Source: Segatella oris
Lineage (GTDB): Bacteria > Bacteroidota > Bacteroidia > Bacteroidales > Bacteroidaceae
Reading direction: 5' to 3'
Assembly: GCF_900637655.1 (NCBI RefSeq)
Contig: NZ_LR134384.1
Coordinates: 1,302,001 to 1,366,000 of the forward strand
DNA length: 64,000 nt
Every line of letters starts with the position of its first letter. Within the stretch, counting starts at the first letter, position 1. A model generated the notes under the pieces. That model did not search any database. It was given only the letters and a program-made list of their open reading frames with translations, and had not been told where the DNA came from. Positions 1 through 39,934 of the stretch are shown here, one piece after another. Position numbers and translations under genes: made by a program.

Positions 1-711
1 GGAGGAAGTTATTTTTGGCATGACATGGAAGCCGAAGGAAGAACAGTAGGGAAATGGCTGCAGAAAAATGGCATTTCGGCTTTTGTCCTGCGTTATCGTA
101 CGGCCGGTTTCTGGGCTTATTTCACTCATTTCCGATATCTTTTCAGAGGAAACCGATATCCGGATGCATTGAATGACTTGCAGCAGGCAATGAAATATAT
201 ACGGGCTCACGCTCGGGAATATGGTATTAATCCAAACCGAATTGGTGCAATGGGGTTCTCTGCAGGAGGCCATCTCGTGATGTCAGCGGCAGAACAACTG
301 TCAGCGGCAGAGCGCCCGGCTTTCGTCGTACCTGTTTATCCTGTTGTAACAATGGTCGATAGATGTGTGCACAAGCGCTCTCGTCGGGCTTTGTTGGGCG
401 ACAGCCGAAAGAACAATCAACAGTTAAGAGAGAAGCTCTCGCTTGAACGGCATGTTCCTCAAGATTGTCCTCCCGTGTTCTTGGTTAATTGTAAGGACGA
501 TCCGATTGTGAAATATCGCAATTCCGAATTGCTCGATTCTGCTCTGACAAGCCGCAAAATACCTCATCGCTATATACAGTATAAAACGGGTGGACATGGC
601 TTTGGGGCAACAGAACACAAGGGAACGGCTGAATGCAGGCAATGGAAAACAGAGTTTCTGAAATGGCTTACAGCGCTTAATATGAATAATTCAGACCATA
701 ATGATCCGTGA
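1..711 (+). CDS. Alpha/beta hydrolase (BD-FAE/acetylesterase type), 5' truncated
   Basis: The reading frame is open from base 1 (GGSYFWHDMEAEG), so the true start lies left of the window; the ATG at 25 is probably internal. The GG near the edge fits the oxyanion-hole HGG of the family. GFSAGGH is the nucleophile elbow (Ser), DDPIV gives a likely catalytic Asp and GGHGFG the catalytic His, so the triad is complete. Family members hydrolyse small acyl or acetyl esters, often from sugars. Substrate unknown. No signal peptide can be judged because the N terminus is missing. The gene ends 52 bp before the palindrome array. Confidence 0.85.
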   Translation, partial: GGSYFWHDMEAEGRTVGKWLQKNGISAFVLRYRTAGFWAYFTHFRYLFRGNRYPDALNDLQQAMKYIRAHAREYGINPNRIGAMGFSAGGHLVMSAAEQLSAAERPAFVVPVYPVVTMVDRCVHKRSRRALLGDSRKNNQQLREKLSLERHVPQDCPPVFLVNCKDDPIVKYRNSELLDSALTSRKIPHRYIQYKTGGHGFGATEHKGTAECRQWKTEFLKWLTALNMNNSDHNDP

Positions 712-762
712 ATTCGGCTTAAGCATTAAGTTCCGATGGAGCGGCGGAGGTAAAAAAAGGTT

Positions 763-1434
763 CGTCCGAGGCCTCGGACGAGCAGAAAACAAGATAAATT
801 GGCTTTCCGAGGGCTCGGATGAGCAGGAAATAGGAAAAAACAGCTTTCCGAGGGCTCGGATGAGCAAGAAACAAGAAAAAATGGCTTTCCGAGGCCTCTG
901 ATGAGCAGAAAACAAGAAAAAATGGCATTCCGAGGGCTCGGATGAGCAGAAAACAAGAAAAATTGGCTTTCCGAGGGCTCGGATGAGCAGAAAACGGAGA
1001 AAATTGGCTTTCGGCCACGGCCGAAGAGTAAAAAACAACGAAAACAGCGTTTCGGCCATGGCCGAAAGCTTAAAAACGGAGAAAATTGACTTTCGGCCGC
1101 GGCCGAAGAGTAAAAAACAACAAAAACAGCGTTTCGGCTATGGCCGAAAGCTTAAAAATGGAGAAAACTACGTTTCGGCCACGGCCGAAACTGAAAAAAC
1201 GCCTCAAACAGGCTTTCCAACCCCTTGGATGAGCAGAAAACAGGAAAAATGGCTTTCCAACCCCTTGGATGAGCTGAAAACTGAAGAAAATGGCTTTCCA
1301 ACCCCTTGGATGAGCAAAAAACTGAAGAAATTGGCTTTCCAACCCCTTGGATGAGCTGAAAACTGAAGAAAATGGCTTTCCAACCCCTTGGATGAGCCGA
1401 AAATAGAAAAAACAGGCTTTCCAACCCCTTGGAA
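763..1434. repeat. 41-bp-period palindrome array, 17 units, three stem types
   Basis: Seventeen short inverted repeats have centres at 771.5, 812.5, 853.5, 894.5, 935.5, 976.5, 1017.5, 1058.5, 1099.5, 1140.5, 1181.5, 1222.5, 1262.5, 1303.5, 1344.5, 1385.5 and 1426.5: every step is 41 bp except one of 40. Units 1-6 have a CCGAGg/cCTCGG stem, units 7-11 a TTCGGCCnnGGCCGAA stem, units 12-17 a TCCAAccccTTGGA stem. Spacers are A-rich on the plus strand (GAGCAGAAAACAAGAAAAA type). Units 7-10 alternate two spacer types, giving an 82-bp higher-order repeat. 41 is not a multiple of 3, which argues against a coding repeat. It fills the gap between the hydrolase and the acyltransferase. Function unknown. 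Confidence 0.95.
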
Positions 1435-1472
1435 GCGGGAAGATAGACGCTTAAACAGAATTCATAATAACA

Positions 1473-2597
1473 ATGGACAAGAAACAATTTGACGACATCA
1501 GACCTTATAATGCTGAGGAAATACCTGCGGCTATGGTACGCATTGCCAATAGCTCTTCATTTCCGATTTTGGCATCTTATGTTTATCCCAACGAACCGAT
1601 TGAAGAGGTGCGGCAGCGTATTGCTGACTATAAGACCGTAAAAGAGTTCCAGACTGAAACCATGCGCATGGTCAATCAGCGTGTGATAGAACATAGTATT
1701 TCAGAGTTTACTTGTTCCGGTTTGGATAAGTTAAGTCCTGATGAGCATTATCTCTTTGTATCCAATCATCGTGATATCATGTTGGATTCCAGTTTACTTC
1801 AGTATTTCTTGGTAACGAGAGATTTTGATACTACAGAAATAACGTTCGGTGCAAACCTGATGATGAATCAGCTGGTAATTGATATCGGGAAAAGCAACAA
1901 GATGTTTAAGGTGGAACGTCCAAGCAATAACATAAAGGATTTCTACCGAAGTTCAAAGCATCTGTCAGAATATATCCGATATGTCATCACGGAGAAAGGA
2001 CAGTCTGTTTGGATAGCTCAACGCAATGGACGGACAAAAGACGGAAATGATGCCACAGACCAAGGTATCATCAAAATGTTCTGCATGTCTTGTCCCGAAG
2101 ATAAGATAAAAGCGATTGATCAGCTGCATATTGTGCCGGTGGCAGTTTCCTATGAGTGGGAACCTTGTGACATACTGAAGACACTCGAACTCTATGAGTC
2201 TCAATTCTCCAAATATACCAAAAAGCCGGGAGAAGACCTTAACAGTATTCTCACGGGAATAATACAGGATAAAGGCAGAGTGCATTTTGAACTTTGCGAC
2301 CCTGTAGCCTATGTAGAATTGGCCAAGTTTGAAACATTGACAAACAATGAATATCACAAGTCTGTGGCTAAGCTTTTAGACAGTAGGATTAACACGGCTT
2401 ATCGGCTTTATCCAAACAACTATATTGCCTATGACCTGCGCTATGGGACAACCAAGTATCAGGAATGTTACACGCAGGAACAGAAAACCGCATTTATGAA
2501 TCATCTTAAGCGTCTGGAGCAATATGACACTTGTGATATAGAAAAGCTGATGGATATATTCTTGGGAATCTATTCCAACCCGGTAAAAAATAAATAG
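1473..2597 (+). CDS. PlsC-like glycerolipid acyltransferase
   Basis: 374-residue protein without signal peptide or clear membrane span. NHRDIMLDS at residues 98-106 resembles the acyltransferase His-Asp box (His99), but the acidic partner is at position +6 (Asp105) or +2 (Asp101) instead of the canonical H-x4-D. Family members transfer an acyl chain from acyl-ACP or acyl-CoA to a glycerol phosphate or similar acceptor at the membrane. It ends with TAG one base before the ATG of the next gene, so the two are almost surely co-translated. The neighbours (exporter, ACP, ligase) suggest work on a specialised acyl product and not housekeeping phospholipid. Alternative: a general lysophospholipid acyltransferase. 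Confidence 0.75.
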   Translation: MDKKQFDDIRPYNAEEIPAAMVRIANSSSFPILASYVYPNEPIEEVRQRIADYKTVKEFQTETMRMVNQRVIEHSISEFTCSGLDKLSPDEHYLFVSNHRDIMLDSSLLQYFLVTRDFDTTEITFGANLMMNQLVIDIGKSNKMFKVERPSNNIKDFYRSSKHLSEYIRYVITEKGQSVWIAQRNGRTKDGNDATDQGIIKMFCMSCPEDKIKAIDQLHIVPVAVSYEWEPCDILKTLELYESQFSKYTKKPGEDLNSILTGIIQDKGRVHFELCDPVAYVELAKFETLTNNEYHKSVAKLLDSRINTAYRLYPNNYIAYDLRYGTTKYQECYTQEQKTAFMNHLKRLEQYDTCDIEKLMDIFLGIYSNPVKNK

Positions 2598-39812: not shown

Positions 39813-39934
39813 ATTACATGGTGTTGTAATTTGTATCGAATTACAACGCAATTTGAGTCATTTTACCGTGTAATTTGAGTCAAAATTGATTGTAACTTGC
39901 ATCAAGTTGCATGGCAATCTGAATTAGGTTACAC
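39813..39934 (+). repeat. Dispersed intergenic repeat, diverged copy 4
   Basis: Carries GTTGTAATTTGTATCGAATTA, CAATTTGAGTCATTTTACCG, GTGTAATTTGAGTCAAA and TTGCATCAAGTTGCATGGCA in tandem, the motif set of the 113-bp repeats. Lies between convergent genes. Confidence 0.65.

What the first reader, a model, noticed from the sequence alone, without database searches (positions are those of the whole stretch)
763..1434. Seventeen palindromes locked to a 41-bp period with three different stem sequences
Palindrome centres advance by 41 bp sixteen times with a single 40-bp exception, although the stem changes from CCGAG/CTCGG to TTCGGCC/GGCCGAA to TCCAA/TTGGA. Geometry is kept while sequence changes, and 41 bp is close to four DNA turns, so sites would lie on one helix face. 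This is unlike CRISPR (spacers are related, not unique) and unlike a coding repeat (not a multiple of 3). It could be a protein-binding scaffold, a DNA-architecture element or a multi-hairpin RNA between two genes.
Basis: seen in the sequence. Interest (0 to 1): 0.85.

Follow-up and report, generated by a model that had tools for sequence, protein, structure and literature searches.

The report
Mobile element carrying phased palindrome array
A small jumping DNA element sits inside an operon of a Prevotella-type bacterium and carries a row of mirror-symmetric DNA motifs spaced 41 letters apart; related rows with many other motif sequences occur elsewhere in this genome and in related species, so the geometry is kept while the letters change.

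Summary
In detail: 17 palindromes at window 763-1434, 15 steps of 41 bp and one of 40, three stems. It is one of many. A two-unit covariance model gave 142 matches in this closed genome, 14 array loci by my grouping, and matches in 13 genomes of its genus but in no other genus sampled (capped searches).

The window copy is a 762-bp modular element: IS982-type inverted ends, two end modules, 17 units between. It lies between a hydrolase and an acyltransferase gene that are adjacent in 17 of 17 relatives where both could be placed side by side; 12 of 29 relative loci could not be used.

Across 42 loci of 11 genomes (325 units) there are 12 perfect arm sequences. Core arm positions are 94% Watson-Crick against 34-43% expected. 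G.U does not exceed A.C, and centres occur in both orientations. I read this as symmetry kept at DNA level, most likely by replication template switching. That step is inferred; recent duplicates differ mostly by one-sided changes.

It works like pneumococcal BOX and P. gingivalis BrickBuilt elements: a new variant of a known kind.

The parts
1..711 (+). Upstream gene, alpha/beta hydrolase (BD-FAE type), cut by the window start; its stop codon (709-711) lies inside the left inverted end
706..723 (+). Left terminal inverted repeat, CCGTGAATTCGGCTTAAG
   Evidence: pattern search, 1 mismatch to GTGAATTCNGTTTAAG; boundary set by eye
724..762 (+). End module A (GGCGGAGG followed by an A-run), similar in several sister elements
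   Evidence: ends listed, compared by eye
763..985 (.). Array block 1: six units, stem CCGAG/CTCGG; centres 771.5, 812.5, 853.5, 894.5, 935.5, 976.5
1008..1191 (.). Array block 2: five units, stem TTCGGCC/GGCCGAA; centres 1017.5, 1058.5, 1099.5, 1140.5, 1181.5; two alternating linkers (82-bp super-repeat)
1215..1434 (.). Array block 3: six units, stem TCCAA/TTGGA with CCCC centre; centres 1222.5, 1262.5, 1303.5, 1344.5, 1385.5, 1426.5
1435..1449 (+). End module C (GCGGGAAGATAGACG), similar in sister elements
   Evidence: compared by eye
1450..1467 (-). Right terminal inverted repeat (reverse complement TTATGAATTCTGTTTAAG)
1473..2597 (+). Downstream gene, acyltransferase (PF01553), 374 aa
2599..6123 (+). 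Next gene, MMPL plus acyltransferase domains, 1174 aa; starts 1 base after the previous stop

Best explanation
A non-autonomous IS982-type miniature inverted-repeat element with the layout end module A - (41-bp palindromic unit) x n - end module C, n = 17 here. SHOWN: inverted ends; sister copies; neighbouring genes that are directly adjacent in relatives; the 41-bp phase; many stems; few mismatched arms. INFERRED: (1) an IS982 transposase moved it in trans. (2) The array grows and shrinks by in-register duplication of 41, 82 or 123 bp, which inherits the phase. (3) Symmetry is kept at DNA level: a mutation in one arm is copied to, or erased from, the other arm by replication template switching on a transient hairpin, so stems drift while symmetry stays and centres flip. 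(4) The T-rich strand reads as hairpins followed by T-tracts, so copies inside operons survive mainly with the A-rich strand as coding strand.
For: Ends: 20 pattern matches in the genome against 4 for the reversed control; 10 of 20 lie at array ends, 2 start decayed IS982 copies. An intact IS982 gene is in the genome, its ends match 13 of 18 bases. Seven elements of 152-813 bp, 7-9-bp TSD-like flanks in four. Hydrolase-acyltransferase gap -23 to 136 bp in 17 relatives, 761 here. Core arm cells 887 of 945 Watson-Crick, 34-43% expected; departures G.T 11, A.C 18, other 29. A1: 107 two-sided cells against 37 in shuffles. Centres in both orientations: CGTA arms GGGG 11, CCCC 12; arm homogenisation and spacer inversion are named as template-switch signatures (PMC8604942, abstract). 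In 13 of 17 tandem-gene sites, and 7 of 7 complete elements, the A-rich strand is coding (my count). Terminator-like sites in 600-1600: 10, all on the T-rich strand, nine in the array; 1.9 expected.
Against: In 65 recent same-array unit pairs differences are mostly one-sided: 20 one-sided, 5 symmetric, 1 inverted centre of 28 changed centres, so symmetric change in one step is not the rule. In A1 the number of pairs with two-sided change (8 against 7.7) and of further pair types (19 against 20.2) does not exceed shuffles. The window copy has no clear TSD (5 of 6), and the TSD scan had no chance control. In 12 of 29 relative loci adjacency could not be confirmed: no hydrolase hit in seven, a fragment at the far locus edge in five. 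At least six loci of the own genome have arrays without recognised ends on both sides. Orientation bias is weak (13 of 17).
Confidence: 0.6

Rival explanations
1. The palindromes are RNA hairpins (terminator-like or stabilising) kept by selection on base pairing in a transcript.
For: Both strands fold better than 20 shuffles each (z -8.0 and -7.2). Terminator-like sites are enriched on the T-rich strand in three arrays (10 vs 1.9, 8 vs 1.9, 5 vs 1.3). T-tracts follow the palindrome at conserved positions. Most recent changes are one-sided, as expected if later loss is by selection.
Against: G.T is not commoner than A.C (11 vs 18; 11 vs 12 when counted once per array, column and pair). The T-tract starts about 5 bases after the GAAA edge, late for a terminator (inference). 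The coding strand is more often the A-rich one. No Rfam match.
Confidence: 0.17
2. A DNA-binding or nucleoid protein uses the evenly spaced dyads and T-tracts as a scaffold on one helix face; spacing is selected, stems are not.
For: 232 of 276 same-strand steps are exactly 41.0; T-tracts near +15.5 and +25 from the centre recur, with four or more T at both places in the linker consensus of 9 of 11 genomes.
Against: Search and chain finder favour 39-43 bp; tandem duplication alone inherits the phase; one genome has 8 of 14 steps at 42. A sequence-reading protein would not tolerate 12 arm types. Phase concentration of A/T tracts (R 0.56-0.60) was computed without a null. 41 bp is 3.9 turns at 10.5 bp, not exactly four.
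Confidence: 0.12
3. Purely neutral tandem repeat whose stems stay symmetric because the copies are young.
For: Blocks of near-identical units and higher-order 82- and 123-bp periods.
Against: Twelve arm types over 11 genomes with linkers only 41-61% identical to those of the window genome, against 31-35% for shuffles, yet arms 94% paired: symmetry has outlived sequence.
Confidence: 0.08
4. CRISPR-like array or degraded coding repeat.
For: Regular spacing; stop-poor frames of up to 123 aa overlap the array.
Against: Linkers are related and the palindromes vary, the reverse of CRISPR. 41 is not a multiple of 3, so the frame changes at every unit. No cas search was made.
Confidence: 0.02

Closest known systems
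BOX elements of Streptococcus pneumoniae (PMC3049150, passages)
   Same: [quoted passage not shown] ends resemble an IS; boxB effect on expression depends on orientation
   Different: Different host phylum and IS family; no report in the passages seen of palindromic units with many unrelated stems at one fixed phase
BrickBuilt and MITE464/PgRS of Porphyromonas gingivalis (PMC4596501, abstract and parts of Results)
   Same: Same order of bacteria; tandem repeats inside inverted-repeat elements, intergenic, many copies; MITE464/PgRS has 41-nt tandem repeats
   Different: Their ends are GAGACC type; BrickBuilt repeats are 23 nt; the paper reports no relatives of the repeats outside P. gingivalis by default BLAST (P. 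gulae has BrickBuilt homologues). I did not obtain the 41-nt PgRS sequence, so kinship to it is untested
MITE239/MITE700/ISPg3 ends of P. gingivalis (table in PMC4596501)
   Same: Ends ACGTGAGTTCGA and ACGCCAGTTCGA-like resemble the ends of the IS982 copies here (compared by eye)
   Different: No palindromic array reported there; the paper files ISPg3 under IS5
REP/BIME and GTAG/CGTC-tagged palindromes (PMC3733652, passages)
   Same: Extragenic palindromes in many stem families; CGTC type reported in Bacteroidetes
   Different: No invariant unpaired tag at one end here; long in-register arrays with a related linker; IS982-type ends
Template-switch (quasipalindrome) mutation (PMC8604942 and PMC8794818, abstracts)
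   Same: Arm homogenisation, spacer inversion and compensatory double changes
   Different: Known as a mutation mechanism at single sites; here it would shape a whole repeat family

Membership tests
MITE (non-autonomous IS-derived element) | Terminal inverted repeats shared with an IS of the same genome | tested here: met
   Array ends match decayed IS982 copies at 16 of 18 bases and an intact copy at 13 of 18
MITE (non-autonomous IS-derived element) | Target-site duplication | tested here: inconclusive
   7-9-bp near-matches in 4 of 7 elements; weak in the window copy; no chance control
MITE (non-autonomous IS-derived element) | No transposase inside; dispersed copies; empty site in relatives | tested here: met
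   Only spurious array ORFs inside; seven two-ended elements; gap of at most 136 bp in 17 relatives. Orthologous intervals, not strains
IS982 family | IS982 transposase carried by IS with these ends | tested here: met
   Intact 306-aa copy NF033520 226.9 bits, cut-off 130; decayed piece 101.3 bits, below cut-off
IS982 family | The transposase mobilises the array element | not testable with these tools
   Needs an experiment
BOX element | boxA, boxB, boxC sequences of streptococci | not tested
   No sequence comparison made; likeness is in layout only
BrickBuilt / MITE464 | GAGACC-type inverted ends | tested here: not met
   Ends here are ACGTGAATTC-type against the table in PMC4596501
BrickBuilt / MITE464 | 23-nt or 41-nt repeat of the named sequence | tested here: inconclusive
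   Unit here is 41 bp, not 23; the PgRS 41-nt sequence was not obtained.
GTAG/CGTC-tagged REP | Invariant unpaired GTAG or CGTC tag at one end | tested here: not met
   In A1 only TC/GA edges and one linker T are invariant; the bases before TC vary
CRISPR array | Near-identical repeats with unrelated spacers | tested here: not met
   Palindromes vary, linkers are related
Known structured RNA (Rfam 15) | Match at gathering score | tested here: not met
   0 in 64 kb; five sub-threshold hits at E<=1

The most novel reading that the evidence does not exclude
A genus-wide, sequence-agnostic DNA element: what is read, by a protein, the replication fork or supercoiling, is the spacing of symmetric sites plus phased T-tracts and not their letters, so stems drift freely while dyad symmetry, 41-bp phase and T-tract positions are kept.
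Probability: 0.14. Interest if true: 0.85.

Novelty: new variant of a known kind. Interest (0 to 1): 0.6.

Why it matters
Covariation is usually taken as the mark of a functional RNA. Here hundreds of units covary with hardly any G.U, on a mobile satellite, with centres in both orientations. That makes a natural data set for the open question of how much palindrome covariation replication template switching produces without selection on RNA. Such arrays could also be mistaken for RNA genes, terminator clusters or CRISPRs in Prevotella genomes, and they offer variable-number typing loci. If the phase proves to be selected, it would be an element recognised by shape and spacing.

Tried and rejected
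Chance: rejected. Coding repeat: 41-bp period, no stable frame. Known RNA or tRNA: none at gathering score, none found. Viral spread: one exact CGGCC-unit pattern found 0 viral contigs and 1 genome contig, Hoylesella enoeca; this sees only that stem, and the tool may leave out the own genome. Literature: searches (open-licence PubMed Central; listings only, 20 of 168 shown) listed no title describing such arrays in Prevotella; other journals were not searched. Likeness to chromosomal parS half-sites (recalled) was considered and dropped because the half-site spacing differs. A/T-tract phasing near helical pitch was computed without a null and is not used as evidence. A first linker comparison used a minority length class and was redone. 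The ORF layout was spoiled by spurious array ORFs and redone. The symmetric-change test came out mainly one-sided and is told against my reading. Of the 20 end-pattern hits, 8 lie at neither arrays nor IS982 copies; two of those were looked at by eye and showed neither, six were not examined. Not resolved: species name; strain-level copy number; arrays missed by caps (150 of 1536 candidates scored, 13 or 15 per genome).

Full report
OBSERVATION. The array at window 763-1434 is as described, with 15 steps of 41 bp and one of 40. In 1,000 dinucleotide-preserving shuffles the longest in-register chain was 4 (once), against 13 at the same threshold in the real sequence; elsewhere in the window no chain exceeds 2.

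EXTENT. The window is 1,302,001-1,366,000 of a closed 3,168,212-bp genome; a DNA search found 15 matching places there, with differing stems. By DNA, 2 of 60 genomes match, the own one included. I aligned 42 two-unit segments of the own genome without gaps; invariant columns are TC/GA edge bases and one linker T. A covariance model from it (R1) gave 142 matches at E<=1e-3 in the own genome, 14 loci by my grouping (150 of 1536 candidates scored). In the genus, 3 of 60 genomes match at E<=1e-3 and 10 of 398 at E<=1e-5; in the family sample 10 of 348, all in this genus (1 of 22 genera), three of them new; in the order sample only the own genome of 344. These counts include the own genome. Together 13 genomes match, plus a Hoylesella enoeca contig that may belong to one of them. 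Searches scored 13 or 15 candidates per genome, so the counts are lower bounds.

STEMS AND PHASE. I traced chains in 42 loci of 11 genomes and kept 325 units, 168 from the own genome. Within that range 232 of 276 same-strand neighbour steps are 41.0, 29 are 42, 8 are 40 and 7 lie at half-steps; G099 has 8 of 14 at 42. Twelve perfect 4-bp arm sequences occur, 10 in the own genome, up to five in one array. The H. enoeca array has GTCGGG/CCCGAC-type stems at the same step, with less perfect centres.

PAIR STATISTICS. In A1, 88.7% of cells pair (shuffles 66.2%), 107 cells have two-sided changes (37.2), covariation score 0.524 (0.123); pairs with two-sided change (8 vs 7.7) and further pair types (19 vs 20.2) do not exceed shuffles; sliding by one column gives 42-61% paired. 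Over 315 even-centred units 887 of 945 core cells are Watson-Crick; independence predicts 34-43% per column. Departures: G.T 11, A.C 18, other 29; once per array, column and pair: 11, 12, 21. The chain finder penalises G.T and A.C alike, so comparing them is fair, though their numbers are held down. No strand shows the G.U excess expected of selected RNA. Centres occur both ways round: CGTA arms GGGG 11 / CCCC 12, CCAA arms GGGG 21 / CCCC 2, CGGC arms CACG 10 / CGTG 11.

UPKEEP. Arm homogenisation and spacer inversion are named as template-switch signatures (PMC8604942, abstract), and template switching is proposed to create and maintain stems (PMC8794818, abstract and opening text). Against a simple form: in 65 same-array pairs with flanks at least 84% identical there are 20 one-sided (12 distinct) and 5 symmetric (3 distinct) arm differences; of 28 changed centres 1 is an exact inversion. 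So mutations arise one-sided and later correction or selection removes the asymmetry. I hold correction the likelier; it is not shown.

MOBILE ELEMENT. Inverted ends lie at 706-723 and 1450-1467. The end pattern has 20 matches in the genome with up to 2 mismatches (reversed control 4): 10 at array ends, 2 at decayed IS982 copies, 8 elsewhere. Seven array elements of 152-813 bp have both ends, some decayed, boundaries set by eye. A decayed transposase piece hits PF13612 at 1.5e-33 and NF033520 below its cut-off. An intact 306-aa IS982 transposase (226.9 bits, cut-off 130) with 18-bp ends is present. TSD-like flanks are 8/9, 8/9, 7/7 and 7/8 in four elements, weaker in three including the window copy. 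The acyltransferase protein was searched in 119 genomes and 30 loci were returned. In 17 of the 29 relative loci the hydrolase lies next to it with a gap of -23 to 136 bp, 16 at most 49, against 761 here. In seven of the other 12 no hydrolase was found, G012 among them; in five only a fragment at the far locus edge. In G069 an array abuts an IS982-like transposase fragment.

SURROUNDINGS. Arrays were treated as intergenic: ORFs overlapping one by more than 60 bp were discarded before layout was read. Of 40 loci with both neighbours 16 are convergent, 17 tandem, 7 divergent. In the tandem sites the A-rich strand is coding in 13 of 17; the seven complete elements are all tandem and all A-rich coding (my count). 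The T-rich strand holds all terminator-like sites in three regions: 10 (nine in the array) against 1.9 expected, 8 against 1.9, 5 against 1.3. Both strands fold better than 20 shuffles each. Linkers keep T-tracts near +15.5 and +25 from the centre; four or more T at both places show in 9 of 11 genome consensuses, the other two rest on 2 and 4 linkers.

COMPARISON. In layout it works like pneumococcal BOX (PMC3049150, passages); in habitat and type it resembles P. gingivalis BrickBuilt and MITE464/PgRS (PMC4596501, abstract and parts of Results), but its ends differ. It fails the tag test of GTAG/CGTC REPs (PMC3733652, passages). Searches listed no title describing such arrays in Prevotella.

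VERDICT. Real: an IS982-type modular MITE whose palindromic satellite keeps dyad symmetry and a 41-bp phase while stems turn over. New variant of a known kind.

Noticed in passing
L077 2560-2800, L076 2500-2830, L017, L019, L075 (own genome near 2573.6, 1818.0, 1871.7, 1900.5 and 1505.9 kb): A second repeat of about 41-42 bp (GTATCTGAACAAATTTTCCCGAAAATTGATAATCTACCCCC type) continues from or interrupts the palindrome arrays; its symmetric part is only TTTTC..GAAAA.
   Followed up: no
L014 2097-2350 (own genome about 1846.1-1846.35 kb): Another unit type (CGTAGGGCGAGAAAG with GTTTTGAGG linkers, 41-42 bp) at the inverted end of an array.
   Followed up: no
L078, L080, L082 (genome G012): Three arrays share a leader of roughly 100 bp or more that is unlike the IS982-type ends, so arrays of another species seem to ride on a different element.
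   Followed up: no
window 709-711: The hydrolase stop codon lies in the left inverted end; relatives align only to about residue 223-228 of the 236 shown, so the insertion may have changed the protein's C-terminus.
   Followed up: partly
L076, L077, L079 (starts of arrays): The hairpin just before the array looks like a canonical terminator of the upstream gene, with the T-rich array following it (read by eye).
   Followed up: no
L084 2760-3023 (genome G069): An array directly follows an IS982-like transposase fragment.
   Followed up: partly
window 39841-39882: A 22-bp tandem repeat of 1.9 copies reported by TRF, outside the array.
   Followed up: no
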